This document shows, one piece after another, positions 1,162 to 62,836 of a DNA stretch of 64,000 nt. Each line of letters begins with the position of its first letter. The first letter of the stretch is position 1. The notes below the pieces were generated by a model. That model was not told where the DNA came from. It made no database searches and worked only from the letters and a program-made list of their open reading frames with translations. The position numbers and the translations under genes are program-made. The stretch is from Janibacter sp. HTCC2649 (GTDB taxonomy: Bacteria > Actinomycetota > Actinomycetes > Actinomycetales > Dermatophilaceae), in NCBI RefSeq assembly GCF_000152705.1, contig NZ_CH672413.1, positions 3,441,046 through 3,505,045 on the forward strand. Reading direction: 5' to 3'.

Positions 1162-1197
1162 GGTATGCCGCCCACGCACCGAGCCATCCGGCATACC
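1162..1197. terminator. Hairpin formed by an inverted pair of the GTATGCCG octamer
   Basis: GGTATGCCG at 1162-1170 pairs perfectly with CGGCATACC at 1189-1197 across an 18-nt loop. It lies downstream of the antiporter and upstream of ruc, both on the minus strand. No T-tract follows, so terminator function is inference. Confidence 0.45.
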
Positions 1198-1240
1198 GGA
1201 TCGTCGTTCTTGGGTCTGCGGCTCACCAGCATGCGCGACG

Positions 1241-1348
1241 TATTTTCTGCGCGCCTGGCGCCCGCCGCGCAGATCCTGACCCGCCGCGCCCCCATGGGAG
1301 TGCGGCGGGCCACGTTGTGCGCCTCTCGCGCCAGCCGCGCAGAAGATA
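1241..1348. repeat. 108-bp imperfect inverted repeat centred on CCATGG
   Basis: The two arms, read towards the centre at 1294/1295, begin TATTTTCTGCGCGCCTGGCGC and TATCTTCTGCGCGGCTGGCGC in 5'-3' sense on opposite strands, diverge for about 20 bases, then pair again through CCCGCCGC next to the central CCATGG. It occupies the 285-bp spacer between the antiporter and ruc. It could be a structured RNA, a MITE-like remnant or a processed leader. No protein is supported here. Confidence 0.6.
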
Positions 1349-1382
1349 GAGCGCGCAGACGCAAGGGAGAATCGGGACCGGC

Positions 1383-2984
1383 TCAGGTGGTGGGAGGCGG
1401 TCCGGAGGGTGACCAGCCGGCGAGGCGACCGCCGCGACTGACGGCATACAGGCGCTTCTCGACCTGGGCGCGCACGGCAGCAGGCGTGACGACGAGCAGC
1501 TGGTCCCCGCGGCGCAACGGGGTCGTCTCCTTGGGGACGAACGAGACGCCGTCGCGCACGATGAGCGCCACGTTGACGCCCGTGGGGAGCCTCAGCTCAT
1601 AGACCTGGACGCCCGAGAGGCGCGACGTCGGGCCGACGGATACCTCGATGAGGTGGGCGCCGATGTCGTCGAAGGCCGTCGTCTCGAGCGTGAGGTCGAC
1701 AGAGTGGTGGGAGTTGTCGAGCCCCAGTCGGTGCGCGACCCACGGCAGCGTCGGCGCCTGGACGAGCGTGAAGATGATGACGAGGACGAAGACGAGGTTG
1801 AAGATGCCCTCGGTGCCCTCGGTGCCGACGGTCAGCGGCACTGTCGCCAGGACGACGGGCACCGCACCGCGCAGTCCCGCCCACGACAGGAACGCCTGGG
1901 CGCGCCACCCCATCCTGAAGGGCGCGGTCGCGACGATCACCGACAACGGTCGCGCCACGAGGAGGAGGACGAGGCCGAGCACGAGGGCCGGGATCAGTTG
2001 CGACGGGAAGCCGGCCGGGTCGGCGAGCAACCCGAGCAGGACGAAGAGGCCGATTTGCGCGAGCCAACCGAGCGCCGTCGAGAACCCGAGGACGGACGCC
2101 CGGTGGGGGAGGCCCATGTTGCCGAGCACGAGGGACGCGAGGTAGCAGGCGATGAACCCGGACGCGTGGACGACATCGGCGGCGGCGTAGGCGAGCACCG
2201 AGATGGTGACGACCCCGATGGCGAACAGGGCTGAGGAGCCGCCGGCCACGCGCGCCATGAGTCGCCCCCCGAGCCACCCGACGGCCAGTCCGATGGCCGA
2301 ACCGATGACGAGTTCGGAGACGACGGTGAGGACGATGTGCCCCACCGACAGCCTCCCAGAACTCGCAGTCTGCAGGGCAAAGGCGGTCACGAGGATGACC
2401 ACGGGGGCGTCATTGAACCCCGACTCGGCCTCGAGCATGCCGCTGATCCGGCGCGGCAACGGGACCCTGCGGAGGACGGCGAAGACGGCGGCGGCGTCGG
2501 TCGAGGCGAGGATCGCGCCGATGAGCAGGGCGATATTCCATGTCATGTCGAGGACGAAGTGGGCGGCCACGGCAACGACCGCGATCGACACGACGACGCC
2601 CACGGTCGCGAGGGCTGCGGCCGGGGCGAGCGACCCCTTGATCGAGTCCCACTTCGTCGTGACACCACCCTCGGTGAGGATGAGGACGAGGGCGGCGTAG
2701 CCGAGAACCTGCGTGAGCTCCTCGTCGGAGAAGTCGATCCCGAAGCCTCGGTTGCCGAGCGCGAGACCGATGCCGAGGTAGATGAGCAGCGACGGCAGCC
2801 CCGAACGGGTCGAGAGCCGCACCGCCGCGATGGCGGTGATGAGGACCGCCGTGCCGATGAGCAGCGCCACCGACAAGGCGTGCAGGTCGCCGGACTCGGC
2901 AGCGGCCAAAGTCTGCGTGACCGAGTCGACGACTGTGCCGGGGGCACCACTGAGAGCGCGCGGCATACCCAGGGTGTCGATCAC
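1383..2984 (-). CDS. Potassium/proton-type antiporter, CPA1 family, with RCK_C domain
   Basis: Inner-membrane monovalent cation/H+ exchanger of 533 residues. About a dozen hydrophobic helices fill residues 40-430. The CPA1 signature ESGFNDAPVVI, with the Asp used for ion exchange, is in the middle, and a cytoplasmic TrkA-C/RCK_C domain (about residues 440-520) suggests ligand gating of a K+-linked exchanger. The start is a GTG at 2984; an ATG seven codons in (MPRALSG) is possible. It is transcribed towards ruc and away from the penicillin-acylase gene, with a 47-bp divergent spacer. Ion specificity cannot be read from the sequence. Confidence 0.85.
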   Translation of the reverse strand: MIDTLGMPRALSGAPGTVVDSVTQTLAAAESGDLHALSVALLIGTAVLITAIAAVRLSTRSGLPSLLIYLGIGLALGNRGFGIDFSDEELTQVLGYAALVLILTEGGVTTKWDSIKGSLAPAAALATVGVVVSIAVVAVAAHFVLDMTWNIALLIGAILASTDAAAVFAVLRRVPLPRRISGMLEAESGFNDAPVVILVTAFALQTASSGRLSVGHIVLTVVSELVIGSAIGLAVGWLGGRLMARVAGGSSALFAIGVVTISVLAYAAADVVHASGFIACYLASLVLGNMGLPHRASVLGFSTALGWLAQIGLFVLLGLLADPAGFPSQLIPALVLGLVLLLVARPLSVIVATAPFRMGWRAQAFLSWAGLRGAVPVVLATVPLTVGTEGTEGIFNLVFVLVIIFTLVQAPTLPWVAHRLGLDNSHHSVDLTLETTAFDDIGAHLIEVSVGPTSRLSGVQVYELRLPTGVNVALIVRDGVSFVPKETTPLRRGDQLLVVTPAAVRAQVEKRLYAVSRGGRLAGWSPSGPPPTT

Positions 2985-3031: not shown

Positions 3032-5701
3032 GTGACTTCCCACCGTGTTGCCCGACGGGTGGCCTACGCCGTCATCGGCGTCCTTGCCGTGACAGCCCTC
3101 GTCCTCTCGATCGTCGGCGTCTCCCTCGTCCGACGGTCCTTCCCGCAGACCGAGGGCGAGATCACCATCGCCGGTCTGAGCGGCAAGGTGGACGTCCTGC
3201 GCGACGAGCACGGTGTGCCCCAGATCTACGGCGACAGCCTCACCGACATCGCCAAGGCGCAGGGCTTCGTCCACGCCCAGGACCGCTTCTTCGAGATGGA
3301 CCTGCGCCGGCACGTGACGTCCGGCCGCCTCTCCGAGCTCGTGGGCGACGCCGGGATCGAGACCGACAAGGTCATCCGCACCATGGGCTGGCGGCGCATC
3401 GCCGAGGCCGAGCTGCCGACGCTGGAGCCGTCGACGCGGACCTACCTCCAGGCCTACGCGGACGGGGTCAACGCCTACCTGCGCGGACGCTCGCCGTCGC
3501 AGGCGTCACTCGAGTACGTCGTCCTCGGCACGAGCGTCAAGGACTACCGCATCGAGGACTGGACACCGGCCGACTCGATCGCGTGGCTCAAGGCGATGGC
3601 GTGGGACCTGCGCGGCGACTACTCCGACGAGCTCGCCCGCGCCCGCCTCTCGACGCGCATCTCCCCGGCGCAGATCGCCGAACTCTACCCGCCCTACGAC
3701 CTCGCGAAGCAGCCGATCCTTTCGCCGGAGGACTGGCGTCCCTCGGCCGGGCAGCCGCAGCAGTCCTCCGCCGTCCCGTCCGCGCTGAGCGCGAGCGCAC
3801 CCGCGTCTTCGCTCGTGGCCAAGGACGGTGCCGCGGGCACCGTCACCAGCCCTTCGGCGCAGCGGGCGTATGCCGCGGTCGGACGCGCGCTCGACTCCGT
3901 GCCTGCCCTTCTGGGTCGCGGTGACGGCATCGGCTCCAACTCCTGGGTCGTGGGGCCAGGCAAGTCCGCGACGGGAAAGCCGCTGCTGGCCAACGATCCG
4001 CACCTCAGCCCCGGTCAGCCCGGGATCTGGTACCAGGTCGGACTGCACTGCCGCTCGACCTCGACGCAGTGTCCGCTCGACGTCTCCGGCTTCTCGTTCT
4101 CCGGGGTGCCCGGCGTGGTGATCGGCCACAACAACAGGATCTCGTGGGGCTTCACCAACCTCGGGCCGGATGTCAGCGACTTCTACCTCGAGAAGCTCGA
4201 CGGCGATCGCGCGTTGCGCGGTGACGCCTGGGAGCTGCTCACCACGCGGCGCGAGGTCATCAAGGTCGCGGGGGCGGCCGACGAGACGATCACGGTGAGG
4301 TCGACCCGCCACGGACCGCTCATGTCGGACGTCATCGACAACGTCGACGATGCCGGCGAGCGCTCGCCTGTGCCGCCGTCCCAGGGTCCGGCGACTCCCG
4401 GCCAGGACTATGCCGTGTCGATGGCCTGGACCGGCCTGCGCCCGAGCAAGACGGCCGATGCGATCTTCGCGATCAACGTGGCCCAGAACTTCGGCGAGTT
4501 CCGCGAGGCGGCCAAGTCGTTCGCGGTCCCGGCCCAGAACCTCGTCTATGCCGACATCGACGGCCACATCGGCTACCAGGCTCCGGGCCAGATACCGGTG
4601 CGGGTCTCGGCCTTCCCCGGGTCACCTCCCGGCTACTGGCCCGCCCCGGGCTGGGACGAGTCCTTTGACTGGCAGGGCGACGTGCCGTTCGAGTCGATGC
4701 CGACCTCCCTCGACCCGGTCGAGGGGTTCATCGTCGCGGCGAACCAGGCCGTCACGGCGAGCACCACCCCGTTCCTCACGACCCAGTGGGACTACGGCTA
4801 CCGCGCCCAACGCATCCGCGACCTCATCGGCAGGGCCACCGAGGGCGGGGGCAAGATCTCGGTGCAGAAGATGGCGGACATGCAGATGGACTCCCGCAAC
4901 GAGTTCGCGCCGACTCTCATCAAGGCCCTGCTCTCCGTGCCCCTGGGTGACGCCAACGACTCCGACCAGGAGGTCGCCTTCACCCGCGAGGCACAGGACC
5001 TGCTGCGCGACTGGGACCACTCGACGCCAGCCGATGACTCCAGCGCGGGTGCCGCCGCGGCGTACTACAACGCGGTCTGGGCCAACCTCCTCCGGTTGCT
5101 CTTCGACGACGAGGTGCCCGAGGACCTCCAGGCCAACGGCGGCAGTCGCTACATGGCGGCGGTCGGACGCCTCCTCGCGAACCCCAAGAGCGCCTGGTGG
5201 GACAACCGGCAGACCGCCGGCATCACCGAGGGCCGCGACGAGATCCTGCGCCAGGCCCAGGTCGAGGCCCGCCTCGAGCTCACCAAGCGGCTCGGCAAGG
5301 ACCCCGACGACTGGCGCTGGGGGTCGCTGCACACCCTGGAGCTCAAGCACCAGGTCCTCGGCGGCGACACCGTCCCGGGCATCGTGCGCAGCATCTTCAA
5401 CCGCGGCGGCTTCGAGATGCCCGGCGGCTCGGCCATCGTCGACGCCAACGGCTGGGACGCGAGCCTGGGCTACGAGACCAACTGGGCGCCGTCGATGCGC
5501 ATGGTCGTCGACCTCGGAGGCCTCGACCGCTCGACGTGGGTCAACCAGACCGGCGCCAGCGGGCACGCCTTCAACGGGCACTACGACGACCAGACGGAGG
5601 ACTGGGTCAAGGGGCGGCAGAACCCGTGGCCCTTCACCGAGAAGGCCGTTCGTGAGGCGGCCGAGGACGAGCTGACTCTCGTCCCCGGTCGGTCGAGCTG
5701 A
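3032..5701 (+). CDS. Penicillin acylase family protein (Ntn hydrolase), membrane-anchored
   Basis: Self-processing N-terminal-nucleophile amidohydrolase of 889 residues. One N-terminal membrane segment (about residues 12-32) anchors or exports it. The alpha part carries the family elements DEHGVPQIYG and QGFVHAQDRFFEMDL. The autocleavage site lies in DGIGSNSWVVG, which makes Ser302 the new N-terminal nucleophile of the beta subunit, followed by LANDPHL and GHNNRISWGFTN. Starts at GTG 3032. Homologues hydrolyse penicillins, acyl-homoserine lactones or other N-acyl amides, and the substrate cannot be told here. A 4-bp gap separates it from the convergent 5-FCL gene. Confidence 0.9.
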   Translation: MTSHRVARRVAYAVIGVLAVTALVLSIVGVSLVRRSFPQTEGEITIAGLSGKVDVLRDEHGVPQIYGDSLTDIAKAQGFVHAQDRFFEMDLRRHVTSGRLSELVGDAGIETDKVIRTMGWRRIAEAELPTLEPSTRTYLQAYADGVNAYLRGRSPSQASLEYVVLGTSVKDYRIEDWTPADSIAWLKAMAWDLRGDYSDELARARLSTRISPAQIAELYPPYDLAKQPILSPEDWRPSAGQPQQSSAVPSALSASAPASSLVAKDGAAGTVTSPSAQRAYAAVGRALDSVPALLGRGDGIGSNSWVVGPGKSATGKPLLANDPHLSPGQPGIWYQVGLHCRSTSTQCPLDVSGFSFSGVPGVVIGHNNRISWGFTNLGPDVSDFYLEKLDGDRALRGDAWELLTTRREVIKVAGAADETITVRSTRHGPLMSDVIDNVDDAGERSPVPPSQGPATPGQDYAVSMAWTGLRPSKTADAIFAINVAQNFGEFREAAKSFAVPAQNLVYADIDGHIGYQAPGQIPVRVSAFPGSPPGYWPAPGWDESFDWQGDVPFESMPTSLDPVEGFIVAANQAVTASTTPFLTTQWDYGYRAQRIRDLIGRATEGGGKISVQKMADMQMDSRNEFAPTLIKALLSVPLGDANDSDQEVAFTREAQDLLRDWDHSTPADDSSAGAAAAYYNAVWANLLRLLFDDEVPEDLQANGGSRYMAAVGRLLANPKSAWWDNRQTAGITEGRDEILRQAQVEARLELTKRLGKDPDDWRWGSLHTLELKHQVLGGDTVPGIVRSIFNRGGFEMPGGSAIVDANGWDASLGYETNWAPSMRMVVDLGGLDRSTWVNQTGASGHAFNGHYDDQTEDWVKGRQNPWPFTEKAVREAAEDELTLVPGRSS

Positions 5702-5705: not shown

Positions 5706-6275
5706 TCACATCGCCTGCAGCCAGGTGATCCCGTCCACGGTGAGCATGCCGTGGACAGGGTGGTCGTGGTCGTAGCGGGGGAGTCGCACGCTGTGCACCT
5801 CACCGGGATGCAGGACGACGACGACCCGGGCGTCGGGGCGCAGCCGAACGAGCGCGCGGTCATAACTGCCGCCGCCGCGCCCGAGGCGCGTCCCGACGAG
5901 GTCGACCCCGAGGCCGGGAGTGAGGACGAGACCGGCGGCCGCAATCGAGTCGGGACCACGCGGCATACGCCGCTCGTCCTGGGCGTCGCACCAGTCAAGA
6001 TCGTTGTCCGCCAACGTGATGGGAACGATGACGCGTATGCCGTGTCCCACGAGGGCGTCGATCGTCGCCGCCGTGGGTGGCTCGGTCCGCAGGGCCTCGT
6101 AGGCCGCCACCGTGCCGCCCGGCGTGATGCCCAGGTCGCGCACGAGGTCGATGGCCCGGGCGGCGAGTGCGAGGTCGTCGGCGGCGCGGTCACGAGCGGC
6201 GGCGATCTCACGACGGGCAGCGAGCAACGTCGGGCGCAGGGCGGCCTTGTCCTGACTGACGCGGTCCTCTGTCAT
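5706..6275 (-). CDS. 5-formyltetrahydrofolate cyclo-ligase
   Basis: Cytosolic ATP-dependent enzyme converting 5-formyl-THF to 5,10-methenyl-THF, recycling a stored folate into one-carbon metabolism. The 189-residue protein has typical length, an N-terminal RRxI(A)AARDRAA helix, and the nucleotide-binding signature LGRGGGSYDR at residues 131-140 after TPGLGVDLVGTR. The ATG at 6275 begins MTEDRVSQ and sits at the end of a 17-bp tandem repeat that generates three upstream mini-ORFs (see 6264-6330). Divergent from the uridylyltransferase gene, as Rv0992c is from galU in M. tuberculosis. Confidence 0.93.
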   Translation of the reverse strand: MTEDRVSQDKAALRPTLLAARREIAAARDRAADDLALAARAIDLVRDLGITPGGTVAAYEALRTEPPTAATIDALVGHGIRVIVPITLADNDLDWCDAQDERRMPRGPDSIAAAGLVLTPGLGVDLVGTRLGRGGGSYDRALVRLRPDARVVVVLHPGEVHSVRLPRYDHDHPVHGMLTVDGITWLQAM

Positions 6276-7774: not shown

Positions 7775-8976
7775 GGACCGTCGACGAGCACCGGGCGGCG
7801 CTGCTGGCTCTGGTCTCTGCCCTTCCACCGGTGACAGTGGCCCTGTCGGAGGCTTTGGGTCGGGTGTTGGCTGCCGATGTCGTTGCGGCCGTGGACCTTC
7901 CGGGCTTCGACAACAGTGCCATGGACGGGTATGCCGTCCGCTCGGCCGACGTTGCCGGTGCCAGTGGGGATTCGCCCGTGGTGTTGGACGTCGATGGCGA
8001 CATCGCGGCCGGGGACACCCGCCGTCACGTGCTGAGGCCAGGCGCGGCGATGCGGATCATGACGGGTGCGCCCCTGCCCGAGGGTGCTGACGCGATCGTG
8101 CCGGTCGAGTCGAGTGACGGGGGAGTGTCGCGGGTTGCCGTGACCTTGGCGGCCGAGGTGGGTCGGCACCTGCGCCTGCAGGGCGAGGACGTGCGTGTCG
8201 GAGATGTCGTGCTGCATGCCGGGGCTCGTCTGGGGCCGGGGCAGGTGGCGCTCGCGGCGGCGTCGAACGTCGCGGAACTGACTGTGGCTGCGCGGCCTCG
8301 CGTCTCGATCCTGTCCACCGGCGACGAGCTGGTCCTGCCGGGCCAGCCGCTCGAGCATGGGCAGATCGTCGACTCCAACAGCGTGATGCTGGCCGCCCTG
8401 GTGACGGCCGCAGGTGCGGAGGTCGTGGGCAGCGGTCACCTTGATGACGACGCAGCGGCCATGAGGTCCTTGTTGCAGGACCCGCCCGGAGAGCCCGACC
8501 TCATCCTCACGACGGGGGGTGTGTCGATGGGTGCCTACGACACCGTCAAGGAAGTCCTGTCGGCCACCGGCACGGTCGACTTCGTCAAGGTGGCGATGCG
8601 GCCGGGGATGCCGCAGGGAGCTGGCGTCGTGGGGGAGCGGCGCACGCCGATCGTCACGCTGCCGGGCAACCCGGTGAGCTCGTTCGTCTCGTTCCACGTC
8701 TTCGTGCTGCCTGTGCTGCGCGCCCTGGCCGGTCTGGAGTGGGAGCAGGCGACGGCCGGAAGCGTTGCGGCACAGGGGTGGTCGTCGATCGAGGGCAGGG
8801 CAGAGTTCACGCGAGTGGTGCTCGACACCGACGGGGTGCGACCGTCGGGTGGTCAGGGGTCGCACATGCTCGGTGCCCTCGCCGACGCGACCCACCTGGC
8901 GGTCGTCGACGCCGCGACCACCCAGATCCAGCCCGGCGACGCGGTTCGCCTCCTGCCATTGGTGGGGCAGGATTGA
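7771..8976 (+). CDS. moeA: MoeA/gephyrin-like molybdopterin molybdotransferase (candidate Glp)
   Basis: Classically inserts molybdate into adenylated molybdopterin. The 401-residue protein has the MoeA order: N-terminal domain with LPGFDNSAMDGYA and RIMTGAPLPEGADAIVPVE, the MoCF_biosynth fold (SILSTGDEL, TTGGVSMGAYD) and C-terminal domain IV after LPGNPVSSFVSFHVF. It is preceded by the UDPGP gene and followed by moaC and mogA, which supports cofactor synthesis. The gene set galU-moeA-rimJ-membrane protein is also the one in which corynebacterial MoeA-like Glp acts as an FtsZ-binding division protein with receptor GlpR. Either or both roles are possible. Confidence 0.9.
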   Translation: MRTVDEHRAALLALVSALPPVTVALSEALGRVLAADVVAAVDLPGFDNSAMDGYAVRSADVAGASGDSPVVLDVDGDIAAGDTRRHVLRPGAAMRIMTGAPLPEGADAIVPVESSDGGVSRVAVTLAAEVGRHLRLQGEDVRVGDVVLHAGARLGPGQVALAAASNVAELTVAARPRVSILSTGDELVLPGQPLEHGQIVDSNSVMLAALVTAAGAEVVGSGHLDDDAAAMRSLLQDPPGEPDLILTTGGVSMGAYDTVKEVLSATGTVDFVKVAMRPGMPQGAGVVGERRTPIVTLPGNPVSSFVSFHVFVLPVLRALAGLEWEQATAGSVAAQGWSSIEGRAEFTRVVLDTDGVRPSGGQGSHMLGALADATHLAVVDAATTQIQPGDAVRLLPLVGQD

Positions 8977-9063: not shown

Positions 9064-9573
9064 GTGGCTAGCGACGAGAGCGACCAGGGCGACGCTCAGG
9101 CTCCCCGCGGCCTGACGCACGTCCGGGCCGACGGGACGGCGCACATGGTCGACGTCTCCGCCAAGGCCATCACCGCGCGCGAGGCCAGTGCTCGTGGTCG
9201 GGTTCTCCTCGCTCCCGCGGCGATCGCTGCCCTGCGCGACGGGACCGTCCCCAAAGGTGACGCGCTTGCGGTCGCCCGGCTGGCCGGCATACAGGCCGTG
9301 AAACGCACACCGGAACTCATCCCGCTGGCGCACCCGGTGGCCGTTCATGCCGCCAGCGTCGACCTTGATGTCGTCGATGACGGGGTCGACATCAGCGCCA
9401 CTGTGCGCACCGCCGACCGCACGGGCATTGAGATGGAAGCCCTCACCGCCGTGAGCGTCGCTGCCCTCGCCCTCATCGACATGATCAAGGCCGTCGACAA
9501 GCACGCCCGCATCACCGACGTGCGCGTCACCGCCAAGTCCGGAGGGCGCTCCGGCGACTGGGTGGAGGCATGA
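9064..9573 (+). CDS. moaC: Cyclic pyranopterin monophosphate synthase MoaC
   Basis: Second enzyme of molybdenum-cofactor synthesis: converts the MoaA product 3',8-cyclo-GTP to cyclic pyranopterin monophosphate. The 169-residue protein has the full MoaC fold with KGDALAVARLAGIQAVK, the LIPLAHP loop, MEALTAVSVAALALIDM and the catalytic Lys/Asp region DMIKAVDK. GTG start at 9064, ten bases after the family A palindrome. Overlaps mogA by four bases (ATGA). MoaA is not in the window. Confidence 0.93.
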   Translation: MASDESDQGDAQAPRGLTHVRADGTAHMVDVSAKAITAREASARGRVLLAPAAIAALRDGTVPKGDALAVARLAGIQAVKRTPELIPLAHPVAVHAASVDLDVVDDGVDISATVRTADRTGIEMEALTAVSVAALALIDMIKAVDKHARITDVRVTAKSGGRSGDWVEA

Positions 9574-10749: not shown

Positions 10750-11721
10750 GTGTTTGTGCAGCCGAGCAGCCTGATCTTCCTGGTCATCATCGGGATTTGG
10801 GCTGCCTATTTTGTCCAGTACTGGGTCCGTCGGCGCGAGCACCTCGCCACGATCCGATCGGTCGACGCGTTCTCCGAGACGATGCGAGTCCTTCAGCGAC
10901 GCGCGCCTCTGCCCTCGGTCGACCACGGTGGACAGGCTCCCCGGACCTACGCCGTCAGCCCCGCCCGCGCGATGCGACCCCAGGTCACGGTCAAGCGCGC
11001 CGAGGCGCACGTCGCCGCGCCGGTCGAGCAGATCGAGCACGTCGAGGTCGTCGAGCCGGTGGCCGCGACGCACGTCGGCATGCGCCCCAACCGCGCCACT
11101 CGCGGCACCGTCGTCCTCATCGGCCTGGCCGGGACCGTCATCTTCGGACTCCTCTCCGCGCTCGGTGTGCTGGTGTCCTGGTCCTTCGTCGTTCCTCTGG
11201 CCATGGCTGCCGGCGGCTTCGTCTGGCTCCGCGCCGGTGTCCAGGCCGAGATGAAGGCGCTGCGCGCCGCTCGCGGTCGTGCTCGTCGTGCTGCCGCGCG
11301 CACCTCAGCTCCTGCTCCGCGAGTGTCTGCGCCCGTTGCCGAGTCCTCGCCCCCGATGGCCGCGCCGTCGCCGCAGCGTTCGGCCGACGTTGTCGCCAAC
11401 GAGCCCGCTGTCGAACCCGTCCTCGAGTCGGCGCCCTTCGACGTGGCCACCGAGGTGGCCGCCAGCGCCGCCTCGTCATCGCCCGCCGCCGACGAGGTCG
11501 CGGAGCTGCCGCCCGTCGCCCAGCACGAGGTGGCACTGCCCGAGCTCGACGAGGACGACATCCCGCTCACGTGGGACCCCCGCCCGGTGCCTCGCCCGAC
11601 CTACACGATGAAGGCCAAGGCCGCCGAGCGGCCCGCTCCGACCCGGGAAGCCGAGCCGGAAGCGCGCGCCGAGCACCCGGCATACGACGAGGTTCTGCAG
11701 CGTCGCACGGCTGGTGGCTGA
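10750..11721 (+). CDS. GlpR/Rv0996-like membrane protein
   Basis: 323 residues. The first 22 residues form a membrane helix followed by WVRRREHLATIRSVDAFSETMRVL, a motif conserved in actinobacterial homologues of Rv0996. A cytoplasmic stretch follows, then two close helices (about residues 118-160) and a long Ala/Pro/Glu-rich tail. In Corynebacterium the orthologous neighbour of the MoeA-like protein, GlpR, is its membrane receptor at the division site. The same neighbourhood here suggests the same role, by synteny. GTG start at 10750; GTG 10756 is possible. Ends before a strong bidirectional terminator. Confidence 0.75.
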   Translation: MFVQPSSLIFLVIIGIWAAYFVQYWVRRREHLATIRSVDAFSETMRVLQRRAPLPSVDHGGQAPRTYAVSPARAMRPQVTVKRAEAHVAAPVEQIEHVEVVEPVAATHVGMRPNRATRGTVVLIGLAGTVIFGLLSALGVLVSWSFVVPLAMAAGGFVWLRAGVQAEMKALRAARGRARRAAARTSAPAPRVSAPVAESSPPMAAPSPQRSADVVANEPAVEPVLESAPFDVATEVAASAASSSPAADEVAELPPVAQHEVALPELDEDDIPLTWDPRPVPRPTYTMKAKAAERPAPTREAEPEARAEHPAYDEVLQRRTAGG

Positions 11722-13014: not shown

Positions 13015-13032
13015 GTTGCTGAGCGTATGCCG
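12997..13032. repeat. Hairpin of two inverted CGGCATAC/GTATGCCG octamers
   Basis: CGGCATACG (12997-13005) pairs with CGTATGCCG (13024-13032) over an 18-nt loop that contains the upstream candidate ATG of the AI-2E gene. This is the second of three closely spaced inverted octamer pairs in the window. Confidence 0.6.
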
Positions 13033-42126: not shown

Positions 42127-43967
<1,841 letters not shown>

Positions 43968-47089: not shown

Positions 47090-47743
47090 TCAGAGGTGGG
47101 TGATTTCGGGCTTTGCCTCGAGGCCGGTGAGGCCGTTCCACGCCAGGTTGACCAGAGCCGCCGCGACGTCGCGCTTCTTGGCCTTGGGGTTCTCGAGCCA
47201 CCACTGACCCGTGAGCGCGACCATGCCGACAAGCATCTGCGCATACATCGGCGCCTGCTTCGGGTCCAGCCCGCGATTCGTGAACTGGGCCGCGAGCAGG
47301 TGCTCGACCTGGGAGGCCACGTCGGACATGAGCGACGCAAAGTTTCCGGTCTGTTGTCCCGGCGGCGAGTCGCGCACGAGGATTCGGAACCCGTCCGTCG
47401 ACCCCTCGATGTAGTCGAGCAGCGCCGTCGCGGCGCGCTCGAGCAGCGCCCGCGACCCTCCGCCGGAACTCAGCGCCTGAGCGATTCCCCCGAGAAGGGA
47501 CTGGATCTCACGGTCGACCACGACGGCATACAGGCCCTCCTTGCCACCGAAGTGTTCGTAGACAACGGGTTTGGAGACACCCGCCGCGCTGGCGATCTCT
47601 TCGACCGTCGTCGCTTCGTAGCCCCGCTTGGCGAAGATCTGGCGCCCGATCCCCACGAGCTGCTCGCGACGTTGCGCCCCCGTCATCCGCCCCCGCGGAG
47701 TGCGCACCTTGGCTGTTGCCTCGTCTCGACTCACCTGCGCCAT
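47090..47743 (-). CDS. TetR/AcrR-family regulator
   Basis: 217 residues. HTH helix region: QLVGIGRQIFAKRGYEATTVEE then ASAAGVSKPVVYEHFGGKEGLYAVVV; a C-terminal ligand domain follows, ending with aromatic-rich QWWLENP. ATG 47743 has GGAGGG upstream; the longer frame is not needed. No divergently paired gene (a tRNA is upstream), so targets are unknown. Confidence 0.88.
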   Translation of the reverse strand: MAQVSRDEATAKVRTPRGRMTGAQRREQLVGIGRQIFAKRGYEATTVEEIASAAGVSKPVVYEHFGGKEGLYAVVVDREIQSLLGGIAQALSSGGGSRALLERAATALLDYIEGSTDGFRILVRDSPPGQQTGNFASLMSDVASQVEHLLAAQFTNRGLDPKQAPMYAQMLVGMVALTGQWWLENPKAKKRDVAAALVNLAWNGLTGLEAKPEITHL

Positions 47744-47848
47744 TGTGCCCTCCGTCGCGCCTCCCCGCTGACGAGACCGTTCGTGAGGTCGCGCACGCGT
47801 CAACTACCCTTTGCGACGTATGCCGTGAGCACGCCTGACGCGCATCGT

Positions 47849-51315: not shown

Positions 51316-51462
51316 CCCCGCACGATGGCACGTCCCACCGACAGGCAGGAGTGGCGAGTGGACGGGTCCGCGGGCCGGGAGCGCAACGGGCGTGGACGGC
51401 ATACCGGCTGGTCGTCGGTAGAGTGGCGCGGTACGCCGCCACGAACCCCGGGAGCCCCACTC

Positions 51463-54029: not shown

Positions 54030-54578
54030 TCAGGTGTTCTGACGAGCGCGGTATGCCGCGACGTGGGCCTTGTTGGCGCACGTCCCGTCGCAGTAGCGCC
54101 GGCTCCGGTTCTTGCTGAGGTCGATGACGACGTCGTCACAGTCGTCCGCAGCGCACACGCGCAGGCGCTCGGTCTCACCGGCGCGGATGAGGTCGATGAA
54201 CGCCATGGCTGCCTCGACGGCCATGCGCCTGGCGATGGGTTCGTCGTCGCGCGTCGCGTGAATGTGCCAGTCGAGGTCGTCGTGCCTGACCAGGCGGGGG
54301 ACGGCTTGGTGCTCGGCCAGGAGCTCGTTGACGCCGACGACCAGGCCATCGACCTCGCGCGTCCACAGGTCGAGGAGTCGGGGCCGCAGGGCATGGACCT
54401 CCTCGAGTGCTGATCGAGTTCGGGGGAGTTCCCCACTCCACTGCCACCCCGTCATGTGGGCGACGAGCGACTCCACCGTGGGGAGATCCTCAACCATCGA
54501 GTCGCCGTGACCGGGCGCAGTGTTGATCAGCGACGCGGCGTATTGCAGCGCCAACTCGGTGTCATGGGCAAAGAGCAT
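54030..54578 (-). CDS. CGNR zinc-finger / ABATE-domain protein
   Basis: 182 residues. N-terminal ABATE (stress-induced ligand-binding-like) region and a C-terminal CGNR finger: RVCAADDCDDVVIDLSKNRS then RRYCDGTCANKAHVAAYR, where the Cys set binds zinc and the SKNRSRRYC stretch is the family core. Likely a DNA-binding regulator. It is divergent from an EamA exporter with a palindrome between (54609-54626), so the exporter is the probable target. Confidence 0.85.
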   Translation of the reverse strand: MLFAHDTELALQYAASLINTAPGHGDSMVEDLPTVESLVAHMTGWQWSGELPRTRSALEEVHALRPRLLDLWTREVDGLVVGVNELLAEHQAVPRLVRHDDLDWHIHATRDDEPIARRMAVEAAMAFIDLIRAGETERLRVCAADDCDDVVIDLSKNRSRRYCDGTCANKAHVAAYRARQNT

Positions 54579-54651: not shown

Positions 54652-55674
54652 GTGAGTGCCGTGAACGCCGGAATCCAGACTCGATCGGCGCGCACGCTGC
54701 TGCTCGGGCTCATCCTCGTCGTGGTGTCCTCGGCCGCGTTCGGATCGTCCGGGGCCTTCGCCAAGTCTCTCCTCAGTGCCGGCTGGACTCCTGCGGGCGT
54801 CGTCACGTGGCGCGTCGGATTCGCTGCCCTGGTCCTCGTGCCGGTCGCGACCTGGGCGCTGCGTGGTCGCTGGAGTCTGCTGCGCCGCAACGCCGGTCAG
54901 GTCATCGCCTTCGGGGCCGTGGCCGTCGCCGGGTGCCAGTTCGCCTACTTCAACGCCGTCGAGACCCTGTCGGTCGCCGTGGCCCTGCTCCTTGAGTACC
55001 TCGGGATCGTCGTCGTCGTCGGCTGGATGTGGGCCCGTCACGGTCAGCGTCCGTCCCGCCTCACGCTCGTCGGTGTGGGCCTCTCCGTCGCCGGGCTCGT
55101 CCTCGTCCTCGACGTCTTCTCCGGTGTCCAGGTCTCGTGGGCGGGCGTGGGCTGGGGCCTGCTCGCAGCCGTCGGCCTCGCCACCTACTACGTCACCTCG
55201 GGCCACGAGCACGAAGATTCGCTGCCGCCGCTGGCCCTGGCCGGGTTCGGCCTCGGCGTCGGTGCCGTCCTCCTCGTCGTCGCCAGCGCCACCGGGCTCA
55301 TCGACTACGGCACCGCCCGCGAGAGCGTCGAGATCGCCGGCCTCACCACCGTGTGGTGGGTGCCCGTCGCCGAGCTCGCCCTGGTCGCGGCCGCCCTCGC
55401 CTATGGCGTCGGCGTCATCGGCACGCGCCTCGTCGGCGCCACGGTCGCGAGCTTCGTCGGGCTCTCCGAGGTGCTGTTCGCGGTCCTCATTGCCTGGGTC
55501 CTGCTCGACGAGCTGCCCGGCTGGATCCAGCTCGCGGGCGGGCTCCTCATCCTCGGTGGCGTGGTCGCCGTGCGTCTGGGTGAGTCACGCGGGGCCACAG
55601 ACGAAGGCGACGGGCACGACGACGGCGAGCAGGCGGCATACACCGATTTCCCTGCGCCGCACCCCGTCGCCTAG
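54652..55674 (+). CDS. EamA-family (DMT) transporter
   Basis: 340 residues, ten helices in two EamA repeats: FGSSGAFAKSLLSAGWTPAGV and, later, FVGLSEVLFAVLIAWVLLDE. An acidic C-terminal tail (about 30 residues) follows. Exports small metabolites or amino acids. GTG 54652 or 54661. Divergent CGNR regulator suggests inducible efflux. Confidence 0.87.
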   Translation: MSAVNAGIQTRSARTLLLGLILVVVSSAAFGSSGAFAKSLLSAGWTPAGVVTWRVGFAALVLVPVATWALRGRWSLLRRNAGQVIAFGAVAVAGCQFAYFNAVETLSVAVALLLEYLGIVVVVGWMWARHGQRPSRLTLVGVGLSVAGLVLVLDVFSGVQVSWAGVGWGLLAAVGLATYYVTSGHEHEDSLPPLALAGFGLGVGAVLLVVASATGLIDYGTARESVEIAGLTTVWWVPVAELALVAAALAYGVGVIGTRLVGATVASFVGLSEVLFAVLIAWVLLDELPGWIQLAGGLLILGGVVAVRLGESRGATDEGDGHDDGEQAAYTDFPAPHPVA

Positions 55675-56660: not shown

Positions 56661-56715
56661 TGCTGTTCGCGGGTGACTTGGGGACAGAGGTGCGCGGGCG
56701 GCATACTCGGGGATT

Positions 56716-57321
56716 GTGAGCGAGACATGGATGGTCGTCGGGTTGGGCAACCCGGGACCGACGTATGCCGGCAACCGTCACAACGTCGGAGCGATGGTCA
56801 TCGACGAGCTGGCCTCCAGGACGAAGAGCGCGCTGCGCACGCACAAGGCGCGTGCGGTCGCGGCGCAGGTCCGGATCGGCACGGGTCCCGGGGGAGTGCC
56901 GGGCCCGAGTGCGGTCATCGCGGTGCCGGGCAGCTACATGAACGAGTCGGGTGGGCCGGTCAAGGCACTCATGGGGTTCTTCTCGGTGGAGCCCGACCGC
57001 CTCGTCGTCATCCACGACGAGCTCGACATCCCCGCCGGTGACGTCCGTCTCAAACTCGGCGGCGGTGAGGGCGGCCACAATGGGCTGCGCTCGATCTCGA
57101 AGTCGCTCGGCACCAAGGACTATCTGCGCGTGCGCGTCGGCATCGGTCGCCCGCCAGGGCGCCAGGACGCCGCCGACTTCGTGCTCAAGGACTTCTCGCC
57201 GGTCGAGCGCAAGGAGCTGCCGTTCCTCCTCGGCGACGCTGCCGACGCGGTCGAGATGCTCGTGACCCACGGCTTGCTCGACACCCAGCAGAAGTTCCAC
57301 GCGCCTGCGGCTGCCAACTAG
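56716..57321 (+). CDS. pth: Peptidyl-tRNA hydrolase
   Basis: Recycles tRNA from stalled peptidyl-tRNA. 201 residues with [17 protein letters not shown] (catalytic His), [29 protein letters not shown] and [11 protein letters not shown] start at 56716, preceded by the octamer at 56699. Confidence 0.95.
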
Positions 57322-57351: not shown

Positions 57352-60300
57352 ATGCCCACGTTGCAACCGGTTGTCGATCATTTCGGCGCCGCCCCCCAGA
57401 TCCACTCTTTCCTCGAGACCGCCACTGGCCCCGGCACGGAGACGCTCGACGTCTCCGTCAGCGCCGGTGCCCGCCCGGCACTCATCGCCGCGGCGGTCGA
57501 GCGTCTGCGCGCGACCGCCCCTGACCGCCTACCCCTGCTGGTCGTCACCGCGACGAGCCGCGAGGCGGAAGACCTGACCAACGCCCTCGGGTGTGTCCTC
57601 GACCCCGACGTCATCGCCGACTTCCCTTCGTGGGAGACGCTGCCGCACGAGCGCCTCAGCCCGCGCTCCGACACCGTCGGTCGCCGTCTGGCCGTCCTGC
57701 GGCGCCTCACCCACCCCGCCTCCGTCGCCGATGACGACGTCGCGCACGGCCCGCTGTCGGTCGTCGTGTCGCCGGTGCGTGCCGTCCTGCAGCCGATCTC
57801 CATCGGCCTCGGTGACCTCACCCCCGTCGCCCTGCGCGCCGGTGAGGACCACAACCTCGACGAGGTCGTCGAGGCACTGGCGGGCGCGGCCTACAGCCGC
57901 ACGGACCTCGTCGAGCGCCGGGGCGAGTTCGCTGTCCGCGGTGGCATCCTCGACGTCTTCCCGCCGACCGAGGAGCACCCGCTCCGCGTCGAGTTCTGGG
58001 GCGACACGATCGAGGAGATCCGCTGGTTCAAGGTCGCCGACCAGCGTTCGCTCGAGGTCGCCTCTCACGGACTGTGGGCCCCGCCCTGCCGCGAGGTGCT
58101 CCTCACCGATGCCGTCCGCGACCGCGCCGCTGCCCTGGCCGACCAGCTGCCCGGTGCCGCTGACCTGCTCCACAAGCTCGCCGCCGGCATCGCCGTCGAG
58201 GGCATGGAGTCGCTGGCTCCCGCCCTGGTCGACGGCATGGAGTCGATGCTCGACAGCTTCCCCGCCGGTTCACCCGTCGTCACCTGCGACCCCGAGCGGG
58301 TGCGCACCCGAGCCCACGACCTCGTCGCCACGAGCCAGGAGTTCCTCGAGGCCGGCTGGGCCAACGCCGCTGCCGGCAACGCCGTTCCGATCGACCTCGG
58401 GAAGATCCTCGGATCCGCCTCGTTCTGGTCGGTCGGCGACCTGCGCGACCACGCCCAAGCCACCGAGCACCCCTGGTGGGACCTCACCCCCTTCGTGCTC
58501 GACCTGGAGACGACCGACGGCAACGCCGTCGAGACCGGCACAGAGGACCCCACGGCATACCGGGGAGACATCGAGTCCGCCGCCTCGGATCTGCGCACGT
58601 GGACCGATGACGGGTGGCGGGTCCTCGTCGCCACCGACGGACAGGGCTCGGCCAAGCGCATCGTCGAGGTCCTCGGCGAGGCCGAGGTCCCCGCTCGCCT
58701 CGAGACCGCGCTCGACACCTTCGAGCCCGGCATCGTCCACGTCACGACGGCCCAGCTGGGCCGCGGGTTCGTCCATGCCGCGAGCCGTCTCGTCGTCCTC
58801 ACCGAGACCGACCTCACCGGAACGCCGTCGACGGGTCCGTCGACCAAGGACATGCGGCGTATGCCGTCGCGCAGACGCAACCAGGTCGACCCGCTCCAGC
58901 TCAAGCCGGGTGACTTCGTCGTCCACGAGCAGCACGGTGTCGGCAAGTTCGTCGAGATGATGCAGCGCACCGTCCAGGGTGCGACGCGTGAGTACCTCGT
59001 GCTCGAGTACGCCCCGGGTACGCGTGGAAAGCACAGTCAGCCCGACAGATTGTTCGTGCCGACGGACCAACTCGACCAGATCACCCGCTACGTCGGTGGC
59101 GAGCAGCCCACCCTCAACAAGATGGGTGGCTCGGACTGGAAGACCACCAAGTCCAAGGCGCGTCGCTACGTCAAGCAGATCGCGGCCGAGCTCATCCAGC
59201 TCTACTCCGCCCGGATGGCGACCAAGGGTCACGCCTTCTCGAAGGACACCCCGTGGCAGCGCGAGCTCGAGGACGCCTTCGCCTACATCGAGACGCCCGA
59301 CCAGCTCAGCTCCATCGACGAGGTCAAGGCCGACATGGAGCGAGAGGTCCCGATGGACCGCCTCATCTGTGGCGACGTCGGCTACGGCAAGACCGAGATT
59401 GCGGTGCGGGCTGCGTTCAAGGCGATCCAGGACGGCAAGCAGGTCGCCGTCCTCGTGCCGACGACCCTGCTCGTCCAGCAGCACCTCCAGACCTTCACCG
59501 AGCGCTATGCGCCGTTCCCGGTGACGGTGAAGCCGCTGAGCCGGTTCCAGTCCAAGAAGGAGACCGACCTCGTCCTCGAGGGTCTGGCCAACGGGTCCGT
59601 CGACCTCGTCATCGGTACCCACCGACTGCTGTCCGACTCCGTGCACTTCAAGGACCTCGGACTGGTCGTCGTCGACGAGGAGCAGCGCTTCGGTGTGGAG
59701 CACAAGGAGCAGCTCAAGCAGCTCCGCACGGCCGTGGACGTGCTTGCAATGTCCGCGACCCCGATCCCGCGCACCCTCGAAATGGCTGTGACCGGCATAC
59801 GCGAGATGTCCACTCTCGCAACGCCTCCGGAAGAGCGGCACCCTGTCCTCACCTACGTGGGCGCCTACGAGGAGAAGCAGATCACCGCTGCGGTTCGCCG
59901 CGAGATGCTGCGGGAGGGGCAGGTCTTCTACATCCACAACAAGGTGTCGACGATCGAGAAGGCTGCGGCGCGCATCCGCGAGCTCGTGCCCGAGGCCCGC
60001 ATCGCGACCGCCCACGGCAAGATGGGCGAGCACCGGCTGGAGCAGGTCGTCCTGGACTTCTGGGAGAACAAGTTCGACGTCCTCGTCTGCACGACGATCG
60101 TCGAGACCGGCCTCGACATCTCCAACGCCAACACGTTGATCGTCGAGCGCGCCGACCGGCTCGGGCTCAGCCAGCTGCACCAGCTGCGCGGGCGCGTGGG
60201 GCGTGGACGTGAGCGTGCGTACTCCTACTTCCTCTACCCGCCCGAGAACCCGCTCACGGAGACAGCTCACGACCGCCTCCAGACGATCGCCAGCCACACC

Positions 60301-61487: not shown

Positions 61488-61491
61488 CGCA

Positions 61492-62238
61492 GTGGGGCGT
61501 CTGAGCCTCCTCGTCACCAGTCCGCGCGTTGCGCCGGGCCTGTTGTCCCGCAGTGCCTGGTATGCCGTCGAGTCGGCTTCCGCGCGCCTGTGCCGTGATC
61601 TTTCGGAGCCGGTCGTGGACGCGATCGTCGAGTCGGGCCTGACCGTGGACGCTGTCGGTCCCGAGCCGACGGCACCCGACCTTGCCCGCCTGCTCGTGAG
61701 CCGTTGCGTGGACAGTGACGTCGTCTGGCTGGGTTCGTCGGACGCGGATCCCGGGCTCACCGACGCGATCGCCTCCGAGGTGTCTCGGCTCGAGGTGCCG
61801 CCAGAGGTCGAGGTCATCGTCGGGTCGTGGGACGTGCCCGGGTCCCGGTTGCTCGATGCCGTCGCAGTGATGGACCGGCTGCGCTCAGCGGATGGCTGCC
61901 CGTGGGACGCCAAGCAGACCCACGAGTCCCTCGCGAAGTACCTCACCGAGGAGGCCGCCGAAGCGGTGGAGGCGATCGAGTCCGGCGACCGCCAACACCT
62001 CGCCGAAGAGCTCGGTGACGTGCTGCTCCAGGTGCTCTTCCACTCGCGGGTCGCCGAGGACGCCGAGTCGGCGCAGGACCAGTTCGACATCGACGACGTC
62101 GCTGGTGGTCTCGTCGACAAGCTGGTCCGTCGTCACCCGCACGTCTTCGCCGATGGTGACGCCTCGACTCCCGAAGAGGTCGAAGCCGAGTGGGCGCGGA
62201 TCAAGGCACAGGAGAAGGCCGCGAAACAGGCCCGCTGA
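61492..62238 (+). CDS. mazG: MazG nucleotide pyrophosphohydrolase
   Basis: Removes noncanonical or stress NTPs. 248 residues. The C half has one MazG domain: DGCPWDAKQTHESLAKYLTEE, EEAAEAVEAI with Mg-binding Glu, LAEELGDVLLQVLFHSR; the N half (about 110 residues) is a degenerate region seen in actinobacterial MazG. GTG 61492, 4 bp after the lipoprotein stop. Confidence 0.9.
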   Translation: MGRLSLLVTSPRVAPGLLSRSAWYAVESASARLCRDLSEPVVDAIVESGLTVDAVGPEPTAPDLARLLVSRCVDSDVVWLGSSDADPGLTDAIASEVSRLEVPPEVEVIVGSWDVPGSRLLDAVAVMDRLRSADGCPWDAKQTHESLAKYLTEEAAEAVEAIESGDRQHLAEELGDVLLQVLFHSRVAEDAESAQDQFDIDDVAGGLVDKLVRRHPHVFADGDASTPEEVEAEWARIKAQEKAAKQAR

Positions 62239-62290
62239 GGGTCGTGCTCGTGCGAGGGTGAGCCACCCGTTCGCCCGCAAGGAGCTCACC

Positions 62291-62836
62291 GTGTCGTACC
62301 AGCCACCACTGCCGCCCGGCCCTGGCCACGATCCTGGGTACGGTCAGGGCCCCGGCCATGGACCCGGTCCACACGCCTACTACGGCCAGCCCACCCAAGG
62401 TGCGCCGACTCCGTACGGCGCACACCCGGCATACCTCGGAATGCCTTCTCCCGCACCACGATCCGCAGGCATGAACCCGTGGGTCGCCGGACTCCTCGGC
62501 GCGTTCGGCGGAGTGGTGCTGACCGTCATCGGCATGACCGTGATCCCGATGCTCCTGTTCGGCTTCCTGCTCAGCGGGCCGATGGGTGACGGCGGATTCA
62601 TGGAGAGTTCTCCACAACGCGTGACGGTGGCCGCAGATGGCTCCGTCTCGGGGACGGCGCTCGCGGAGGCGCTGGAGAGCGGGTGGTACGAGGACATGAC
62701 CTGCCCGAACACGGCGGAGGTCGCCACCGATGTCACGACGATCTGCGAGGGCAGCGACGGAGTGGACCCCATGCGGGTGGTCGTCGTGTTCCGCGGCACG
62801 GACGGAAGGTTTGGCACTGCCGACCTCTTCGAGTGA
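62291..62836 (+). CDS. Small membrane protein with Gly/Pro-rich N-terminus
   Basis: 181 residues from GTG 62291, with AAGGAG six bases upstream. A Pro/Gly/Tyr-rich cytoplasmic tail (about 60 residues), one or two helices (AGLLGAFGGVVLTVIGMTVI, MLLFGFLLSGPM) and a 90-residue extracytoplasmic domain with two Cys (DMTCPNTAEV, TTICEGSDG) that may form a disulfide, resembling DUF4333-like domains. Not recognised further. Confidence 0.7.
   Translation: MSYQPPLPPGPGHDPGYGQGPGHGPGPHAYYGQPTQGAPTPYGAHPAYLGMPSPAPRSAGMNPWVAGLLGAFGGVVLTVIGMTVIPMLLFGFLLSGPMGDGGFMESSPQRVTVAADGSVSGTALAEALESGWYEDMTCPNTAEVATDVTTICEGSDGVDPMRVVVVFRGTDGRFGTADLFE

What the first reader, a model, noticed from the sequence alone, without database searches (positions are those of the whole stretch)
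1163..62434. Extremely over-represented octamer GTATGCCG resembling a DNA uptake or chromosome-architecture sequence
I counted 53 exact copies (25 forward, 28 reverse) in 64 kb, about one per 1.2 kb. With roughly 69% GC, independent-base expectation is near 2. Copies occur in different reading frames and in spacers, so codon or amino-acid preference does not explain them. Both orientations are balanced, unlike KOPS/Chi-type skewed motifs. They are missing from the ISL3 part and the IS110 element but reappear right outside (24699). The spacing resembles Haemophilus and Neisseria uptake sequences. Competence is not well known in this group, so a novel uptake, segregation, methylation or nucleoid-protein site is possible.
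Basis: partly seen in the sequence, partly recalled or inferred. Interest (0 to 1): 0.88.

Follow-up and report, generated by a model that had tools for sequence, protein, structure and literature searches.

The report
Uptake-like DNA signposts in actinobacteria
An eight-letter DNA word is repeated about three thousand times in this bacterium's genome and has lineage-specific 'dialects' in its relatives, which looks like the self-recognition signposts that some bacteria use when they take up DNA, but in a major bacterial group where I found no report of such signposts.

Summary
Observation confirmed. GTATGCCG occurs 53 times in the window (25+/28-) against 0.9 in dinucleotide shuffles and 2.5 under synonymous-codon shuffling. 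The genome (probably Knoellia) holds 1486+1496 copies against 59 for the reversed word, without regional strand bias. Intergenic density is twice coding density, close pairs mostly face each other and several form near-perfect hairpins, and the word is the core of a ~19-bp motif. 17 of 22 aligned sites are conserved in a second Knoellia-group genome, versus 22% of all 8-mers.

The motif is clade-specific: 105 of 186 genomes of the GTDB family are loaded, 0 of 362 sampled from 19 other families. Relatives use GGATGCCG, GAATGCCG, or unrelated words (19 of 19 Janibacter-type genomes: GCGAAGGGG; G016: GGTCTACG). In a second family 21 of 33 sampled genomes hold at least 2000 GGATGCCG.

Best reading: an uptake-sequence-like system kept by biased transformation through ComEA/ComEC and a Tad pilus. 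The genome signature is shown; uptake, competence and receptor are inferred. comEC occurs in motif-free relatives too, no receptor was found, the intergenic excess and extension are not seen in every lineage, and a methylation/repair drive is untested.

The parts
1163..1170 (+). GTATGCCG copy, intergenic; inverted pair with 1189
1189..1196 (-). GTATGCCG copy, intergenic; inverted pair with 1163
1442..1449 (-). GTATGCCG copy
2961..2968 (-). GTATGCCG copy
3868..3875 (+). GTATGCCG copy
5961..5968 (-). GTATGCCG copy
6035..6042 (+). GTATGCCG copy
7929..7936 (+). GTATGCCG copy
9285..9292 (-). GTATGCCG copy
11678..11685 (-). GTATGCCG copy
12997..13004 (-). GTATGCCG copy, intergenic; inverted pair with 13025
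13025..13032 (+). GTATGCCG copy, intergenic; inverted pair with 12997
14599..14606 (+). GTATGCCG copy
16225..16232 (+). GTATGCCG copy
18399..18406 (-). GTATGCCG copy
19128..19135 (-). GTATGCCG copy
19236..19243 (-). GTATGCCG copy
20127..20134 (+). GTATGCCG copy
21066..21073 (-). GTATGCCG copy
21276..21283 (+). GTATGCCG copy
22229..22236 (+). GTATGCCG copy
24699..24706 (-). GTATGCCG copy, intergenic, just outside the IS110 reading frames
25639..25646 (-). GTATGCCG copy, intergenic
25992..25999 (+). GTATGCCG copy
30777..30784 (-). GTATGCCG copy
32132..32139 (+). GTATGCCG copy
32833..32840 (+). GTATGCCG copy; left arm of a long intergenic hairpin
32865..32872 (-). GTATGCCG copy; right arm of a long intergenic hairpin
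35985..35992 (+). GTATGCCG copy
37154..37161 (-). GTATGCCG copy
40171..40178 (+). GTATGCCG copy
40785..40792 (-). GTATGCCG copy
41598..41605 (+). GTATGCCG copy
43658..43665 (+). GTATGCCG copy
44422..44429 (+). GTATGCCG copy
44482..44489 (-). GTATGCCG copy
45836..45843 (-). GTATGCCG copy
46521..46528 (+). GTATGCCG copy
47524..47531 (-). GTATGCCG copy
47818..47825 (+). GTATGCCG copy, intergenic, upstream of tRNA-Gln
49952..49959 (-). GTATGCCG copy
50682..50689 (+). GTATGCCG copy
51397..51404 (-). GTATGCCG copy, intergenic
52897..52904 (-). GTATGCCG copy
54051..54058 (+). GTATGCCG copy
55634..55641 (-). GTATGCCG copy
56699..56706 (-). GTATGCCG copy, intergenic
56763..56770 (+). GTATGCCG copy
58553..58560 (-). 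GTATGCCG copy
58859..58866 (+). GTATGCCG copy
59793..59800 (-). GTATGCCG copy
61560..61567 (+). GTATGCCG copy, intergenic
62427..62434 (-). GTATGCCG copy, intergenic

Best explanation
GTATGCCG is the core of a ~19-bp DNA-uptake-sequence-like motif. Shown: thousands of strand-balanced copies, an extended asymmetric consensus, conservation of sites between related genomes, opposite-facing hairpin pairs, clade-specific dialects, and an adjacent comEA-comEC pair plus Tad (Flp) pilus clusters in the genome. Inferred: during natural transformation a surface DNA receptor, most likely a pilin-like component of a Tad pilus or the ComEA step, prefers DNA bearing the motif. Fragments from kin that carry a copy are taken up and recombined more often, so over evolutionary time copies spread and are kept by this uptake bias. 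When receptor specificity shifts, the thousands of copies drift to a new dialect.
For: Abundance and balance: 1486/1496 copies, control 59; 349 in 464 kb of the own genome against about 16 under a synonymous-codon null; orientation homogeneous over 21 regions, chi2 p=0.99. Asymmetric extension: consensus GTATGCCGTGCGCTCGCCT from 80 intergenic sites; the downstream 11 bp learned there also score high at 269 coding sites against stretches 30 bp further on in the same codon phase (p=4e-21). Intergenic 1.39/kb against coding 0.66/kb. Adjacent pairs within 100 bp: 27 of 31 opposite-facing (p=3e-5); 8 of the 17 opposite-facing pairs outside genes are long near-perfect hairpins. Site maintenance: 10 of 12 own sites conserved in K. 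subterranea and 7 of 10 in G007 (17 of 22), against 21.7% of all 8-mers (p=4e-8); a further comparison of L066 sites with K. remsis gives 7 of 8. Codon conversion: 119 of 461 TAT codons lie in the motif; G-TAY-GCC-G is TAT:TAC 119:12, while outside the motif TAT is 342 of 2231 Tyr codons. Dialects; in the GAATGCCG genome G055 the left-over GTATGCCG lies 34 of 41 times in the Tyr-Ala frame, against 119 of 349 in the own genome (p=2e-9). Machinery: ComEA domains, ComEC and Tad clusters in G000. In passages read: M. luteus needs ComEC, its Flp pili are part of the transformation apparatus, and tad + comEA/EC is frequent in actinobacteria (PMC4322843); DUS dialects and inverted pairs (PMC3630211); non-coding excess, even spacing and lack of orientation bias of uptake sequences (PMC1939737).
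Against: comEC is in 180 of 186 genomes, so it does not track the motif, and comEA lies beside it in most motif-free loci examined; the two Tad clusters examined are mostly present in motif-free relatives too, and in G178 (GGATGCCG dialect) cluster-A pilin genes were not detected. No receptor was found. I saw no report of competence in these genera. The intergenic excess is not universal: G007 0.60 intergenic vs 0.66 coding per kb (5 intergenic sites), five Ornithinimicrobium genomes 0.29 vs 0.48 (4 sites), and the g4 genomes do not share the +8 preference; G221 of the second family 0.86 vs 1.32. Even spacing is weak: dispersion 0.78 over 92 bins, p=0.07 (p=1e-4 only if the 6 empty bins are left out). 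In G055 only 5 of 11 close GAATGCCG pairs face each other (one contig counted twice). The relic reading of G055 is partial: the antisense Ala-Tyr frame, where the switch would change Tyr to Phe, kept only 2 GTATGCCG. Janibacter and G016 words share no sequence with GTATGCCG and may be unrelated. IS depletion rests on 3 expected copies; the empty tracts were picked because they are empty. A methylation/repair drive was not tested.
Confidence: 0.6

Rival explanations
1. HIP1-like drive: a methyltransferase recognises the motif and a methylation-coupled mismatch-repair bias creates and keeps copies; dialects follow methyltransferase specificity.
For: HIP1 is also hyper-abundant and is replaced in some lineages by alternate HIPs, each matched by a methyltransferase (PMC4390886 passages); one alternate HIP in the passages (ACCGGC/GCCGGT) is itself not a palindrome. 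The one-transition neighbour GTACGCCG is depleted here (26 against 63 expected), as a repair drive predicts (an uptake drive predicts it too).
Against: The abstract describes HIPs as palindromic words; this motif is asymmetric with a ~19-bp extension and occurs in opposite-facing hairpin pairs. No methyltransferase was searched for, so this rival is open.
Confidence: 0.16
2. Chromosome-architecture site: a sequence-specific nucleoid or segregation protein binds the thousands of copies.
For: Conservation of sites; slight evenness of spacing.
Against: No regional strand bias (chi2 p=0.99), unlike KOPS or Chi; dialect turnover (G055, G016) would need thousands of sites to change with the protein without any drive; hairpin pairs unexplained.
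Confidence: 0.12
3. Transcription terminators or a small mobile repeat family.
For: Inverted intergenic pairs fold into strong hairpins.
Against: 268-269 of 349 copies are not intergenic and most are single; flanks beyond the motif look unrelated by inspection, and in aligned DNA of motif-free relatives the sites differ by 2-4 substitutions in 11 of 13 comparisons (2 gapped), not by clean insertions.
Confidence: 0.04
4. Codon or composition artefact.
For: 205 of 349 copies sit in two frames (Tyr-Ala sense 119, Ala-Tyr antisense 86).
Against: Synonymous-codon shuffling gives 16 against 349; intergenic density is higher; 67 of 186 related genomes are low.
Confidence: 0.01

Closest known systems
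Neisseriaceae DNA uptake sequence (DUS) and its dialects, receptor ComP
   Same: Hundreds to thousands of copies, inverted stem-loop pairs, clade-specific dialects (PMC3630211 passages)
   Different: No DUS core CTG; no PilM hit in G000 (7 of 186 family genomes have one); monoderm actinobacteria; no ComP-like receptor found
Pasteurellaceae uptake signal sequence (USS)
   Same: [quoted passage not shown] core plus weaker extended flank (recalled)
   Different: Sequence unrelated (USS core recalled, not fetched); Gram-positive host
Cyanobacterial HIP1 and alternate HIPs
   Same: Hyper-abundant 8-mer replaced by other words in some lineages (PMC4390886 passages)
   Different: HIP1 is palindromic and tied to orphan methyltransferases; this motif is asymmetric with a ~19-bp extension and hairpin pairs
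Micrococcus luteus Flp-pilus/ComEA-ComEC transformation
   Same: Also an actinobacterium, with the same gene set (tad + comEA/EC; PMC4322843 passages)
   Different: The term 'uptake sequence' does not occur in that paper or in PMC8467076

Membership tests
Uptake sequences in general (DUS/USS) | Hundreds to thousands of copies genome-wide, far above chance | tested here: met
   2982 copies, control 59; codon null 349 vs 16 in 464 kb
Uptake sequences in general (DUS/USS) | Asymmetric core, both orientations, no orientation bias along the chromosome | tested here: met
   174 of 349 forward, homogeneous over 21 regions p=0.99
Uptake sequences in general (DUS/USS) | Inverted pairs able to form hairpins | tested here: met
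   27 of 31 close pairs opposite-facing; 8 of 17 outside genes near-perfect hairpins; weaker in G055 (5 of 11)
Uptake sequences in general (DUS/USS) | Excess in non-coding DNA | tested here: met
   1.39 vs 0.66 per kb in the own genome; not in G007, Ornithinimicrobium or G221
Uptake sequences in general (DUS/USS) | Even spacing | tested here: inconclusive
   dispersion 0.78 over 92 bins, p=0.07; p=1e-4 without the 6 empty bins
Uptake sequences in general (DUS/USS) | Clade-specific dialects | tested here: met
   labels cluster on a ComEC tree
Uptake sequences in general (DUS/USS) | Scarce in foreign DNA | tested here: inconclusive
   0 in 3,960 bp of IS (3.0 expected); three near-empty tracts were picked after the fact and their accessory nature is inferred; phage TJE1 2 copies in 49 kb = control, motif status of its host not checked
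Uptake sequences in general (DUS/USS) | Organism naturally competent | tested here: inconclusive
   comEA, comEC, tad genes present but also in motif-free relatives
Uptake sequences in general (DUS/USS) | Motif enhances DNA uptake or transformation | not testable with these tools
   needs experiment
Neisseriaceae DUS | DUS core CTG | tested here: not met
   GTATGCCG and its complement lack CTG
Neisseriaceae DUS | Type IVa pilus with ComP | tested here: not met
   no PilM hit in G000; ComP itself not searched
Chi / KOPS | Strand skew relative to replication | tested here: not met
   no regional orientation bias; 1486 vs 1496; origin not mapped
HIP1-type | Palindromic word | tested here: not met
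   GTATGCCG / CGGCATAC is not a palindrome
HIP1-type | Cognate orphan methyltransferase | not tested
   no search made

The most novel reading that the evidence does not exclude
Two families of one actinobacterial order run a DNA-uptake-sequence system of their own, read by a Tad-pilus or ComEA-linked receptor rather than ComP, with at least three one-base dialects and possibly wholly different words (Janibacter, G016). It would be an independent evolution of self-DNA recognition in monoderm bacteria, caught in mid-switch in at least one genome.
Probability: 0.53. Interest if true: 0.93.

Novelty: new variant of a known kind. Interest (0 to 1): 0.87.

Why it matters
From what I read and recall, uptake sequences are known from two Gram-negative families, Neisseriaceae and Pasteurellaceae. 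A third, independent case in actinobacteria with natural dialect switches would let the self-recognition and molecular-drive hypotheses be tested again, would give a hunting list for a first Tad-pilus DNA receptor, and would offer a practical handle (adding the motif to donor DNA) for transforming poorly tractable environmental actinobacteria such as the Tetrasphaera group.

Tried and rejected
Type IVa pilus as carrier: PilM hit in 7 of 186 genomes, none of them G000. Presence of comEC, gene content around comEC, ComEA alignment by eye and two Tad clusters in 20 fetched stretches each: none tracks the motif. Other abundant words in motif-free genomes checked and not claimed: ACGCCGGTCGAG in G027 (mostly a clustered intergenic repeat array) and CGAGCAGGACGA in G083 (coding repeats); GTACGCCG in G088 (145 vs 22 expected) is left open because the same and similar TAC-rich words rank high outside the family. 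A test of dialect relics in the mixed genomes G044/G045 had too few sites (8 GTATGCCG in 36 kb). Word scan in other families: 16 stretches of 20 kb. Literature: the listings of full-text searches showed no uptake-sequence report for actinobacteria in the held open-access library; several listings were capped (15 of 643 papers; 20 of 402; 15 of 121).
Full report
OBSERVATION. GTATGCCG occurs 53 times in the window, 25 forward and 28 reverse, against a mean of 0.90 in 100 dinucleotide shuffles. It is the top 8-mer. With genes re-coded by shuffled synonymous codons the window expectation is 2.5. The whole genome G000 (4,235,068 bp, 7 contigs) has 1486 + 1496 copies; the reversed word has 35 + 24. 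In 464 kb of own sequence (window plus twenty 20-kb stretches) there are 349 copies against 16 under the codon null.

ANATOMY. Gene calls are from a simple finder of my own, trained on codon usage. Intergenic density is 1.39 per kb, coding 0.66 per kb. In genes the motif uses mainly the frame G-TAT-GCC-G (Tyr-Ala, 119) and its antisense (Ala-Tyr, 86): 205 of 349 copies. 119 of 461 TAT codons lie in the motif, and the context G-TAY-GCC-G is TAT 119: TAC 12, while outside the motif TAT is 342 of 2231 Tyr codons. In motif-free relatives the context is 0:6 (Phycicoccus jejuensis clade), 0:13 (Janibacter G092) and 0:41 (G088), but TAT is rarer there overall. The 80 intergenic sites give a 19-bp consensus GTATGCCGTGCGCTCGCCT; the downstream 11 bp learned from them score higher at 269 coding sites than at stretches 30 bp further on in the same codon phase (means 0.22 and -2.64, p=4e-21). 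Of 31 adjacent pairs within 100 bp, 27 face opposite ways; 10 of these are inside genes and 17 not, and 8 of the 17 are long near-perfect hairpins, for example window 32833/32865. Counts per 5-kb bin are slightly underdispersed (mean 3.77, variance 2.96, 92 bins): p=0.07, or 1e-4 if the 6 empty bins are left out. Orientation does not differ between regions (chi2 7.5, 20 df, p=0.99). Sense copies lie slightly nearer gene starts and antisense ones nearer gene ends (p=0.007).

MAINTENANCE AND ORIGIN. Own-genome sites in alignments with Knoellia-group genomes (about 77-82% identity) are conserved in 10 of 12 cases in K. subterranea and 7 of 10 in G007, together 17 of 22, against 21.7% of all 8-mers (p=4e-8). 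K. remsis, compared at some of the same sites, gives 7 of 8. In aligned DNA of G065 (Janibacter-type) and G160 (Phycicoccus jejuensis clade) none of 13 site comparisons is conserved; 11 differ by 2-4 substitutions and 2 are gapped. Copies therefore seem to arise by point change, not by insertion.

DISTRIBUTION. ComEC neighbours with names put the window in or next to Knoellia (K. subterranea ComEC 83% identical). All 9 held genomes of the genus are loaded. In the family, 105 of 186 genomes have at least 600 copies and at least 2.5 times the control; 14 are intermediate (180-600) and 67 low; the forward fraction in the 105 is 0.47-0.53. In the order scan none of the 362 sampled genomes of 19 other families is loaded with GTATGCCG. 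Losses inside genera: G016 (37 copies; siblings 1251-1660), G113 (50), G083 (19; siblings 3681 and 1062).

LINEAGE DIFFERENCES. The extension varies: not-A at +8 and G/C at +12 recur in several genera, but the g4 genomes do not share the +8 preference. Intergenic excess is strong in the Terrabacter group (2.14 vs 0.40 per kb), absent in G007 (0.60 vs 0.66) and in five Ornithinimicrobium genomes (0.29 vs 0.48), both with very few intergenic sites.

DIALECTS. GGATGCCG: 3816 and 3838 (G025, G026), 4480 and 3619 (G042, G043), 3949 (G178); mixed with GTATGCCG in G044 (2195 + 1217) and G045 (2099 + 1189); mild in G153 and G158 (1210, 1336); the other family members have about 240-1240, more in larger genomes. 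GAATGCCG: 3135 in G055, 730 in G054, 388 in G057, 352 in G086, at most 253 in the other 182. In G055 the left-over GTATGCCG lies 34 of 41 times in the Tyr-Ala frame, where the new dialect would change Tyr to Asn, while intergenic sites are 26 GAATGCCG to 4 GTATGCCG. I read this as a relic of a switch; against that, the antisense Ala-Tyr frame, where the switch would give Phe, kept only 2. GAATGCCG sites keep part of the extension (not A at +8, G or C at +9); some close pairs form hairpins, but only 5 of 11 face each other (one contig counted twice). Two unrelated words appear in lineages without GTATGCCG: GCGAAGGGG in all 16 genomes of g27 (478-1136 copies) and all 3 of g35 (1304-1941), at most 124 in the other 167; g27 is called Janibacter-type because named Janibacter loci group with G065. 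GGTCTACG has 1183 copies in G016 against 234-315 in its four siblings. A second family, handle f19, carries GGATGCCG: 21 of 33 sampled genomes have at least 2000 copies, 10 have 1000-2000, 2 fewer; no genome of another family outside f1 exceeds 1481, reached in a 9.4-Mb genome with control 681, so the f19 genomes near 1000 are not clearly above background. In G221 there are 282 copies in 220 kb against 47 under the codon null, without intergenic excess (0.86 vs 1.32 per kb). On a quick ComEC tree of 63 rows the labels cluster (12 changes against 27.9 when shuffled); GGATGCCG needs at least two origins and the 4 Janibacter rows are one clade (a gene tree, 20 of 60 inner branches weakly supported).

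MACHINERY. comEC is in 180 of 186 genomes. In G000 comEA (SLBB + helix-hairpin-helix, L066:8306-8779, called without its true start) and comEC (L066:8833-11157) are adjacent. G000 has four Tad-type loci (L067, L073, L076, L084). PilM, a type IVa pilus marker, has no hit in G000. In passages read, deleting M. luteus comEC abolishes transformation and Flp pili are part of the apparatus (PMC4322843), so the same parts are plausible here. None of the loci compared distinguishes motif-bearing from motif-free genomes, so the receptor remains unknown.

FOREIGN DNA. IS stretches: 0 copies in 3,960 bp, 3.0 expected. Three tracts are nearly empty (L067:3611-20000, 0 vs 12.3; L084:1-12790, 0 vs 9.6; L069:7121-19620, 1 vs 9.4); they were picked after seeing the counts, so this is description, not a test; two of them hold extra Tad clusters. 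Phage TJE1 of Tetrasphaera jenkinsii: 2 copies in 49 kb, equal to the control; whether its host carries the motif was not checked.

MECHANISM. A drive is needed to replace thousands of sites when the word changes. Biased uptake followed by recombination supplies such a drive and, by precedent in Neisseriaceae and Pasteurellaceae, fits asymmetry, both orientations, non-coding excess, hairpin pairs and dialects together. The HIP-like methylation/repair model is the main rival and was not tested. Membership in the Neisserial DUS family is rejected; 'works like an uptake sequence' is proposed at 0.60.

PAPERS. Seen as passages: PMC4322843, PMC8467076, PMC6370729, PMC3630211, PMC4390886, PMC1939737; as abstract and outline: PMC2346458; all others only as search listings.

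Noticed in passing
G092/G065 genomes (L063, L203, L213-L219; L059, L185): Janibacter-type genera carry their own abundant word GCGAAGGGG (19 of 19 genomes); in G092 its 8-base part CGAAGGGG is sevenfold denser in intergenic DNA and some copies form inverted pairs.
   Followed up: partly
L049, L169, L189, L206-L212 (G016): A genome inside a GTATGCCG genus has almost none of that word and has 1183 copies of GGTCTACG instead.
   Followed up: partly
L239, L242-L251 (G221) and family f19: A second, unnamed family carries GGATGCCG in the thousands (21 of 33 sampled genomes with at least 2000).
   Followed up: partly
L062, L183, L220-L225 (G088): GTACGCCG is six- to sevenfold above the codon null (145 vs 22); unclear whether a further dialect or codon context.
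   Followed up: partly
window 23459-24670: The IS110 transposase is split over two open frames (DEDD part and Transposase_20 part), so the copy looks broken.
   Followed up: partly
L067:5878-12121 and L084:4921-13328: Extra Tad pilus clusters of the own genome lie in tracts almost without the motif, which suggests later acquisition.
   Followed up: no
L054:6900-7290 (G027): Clustered intergenic repeat array with ACGCCGGTCGAG in both orientations.
   Followed up: no
L237 (G204, family f4): GCGGCGAA 13 copies in 20 kb against 0.4 under the codon null; not followed. Several f4 genomes also have GGATGCCG up to about 8 times control, at low absolute counts.
   Followed up: no
L063 (G092): Thirty CCCCCCCC words in 20 kb, i.e. 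long C runs.
   Followed up: no
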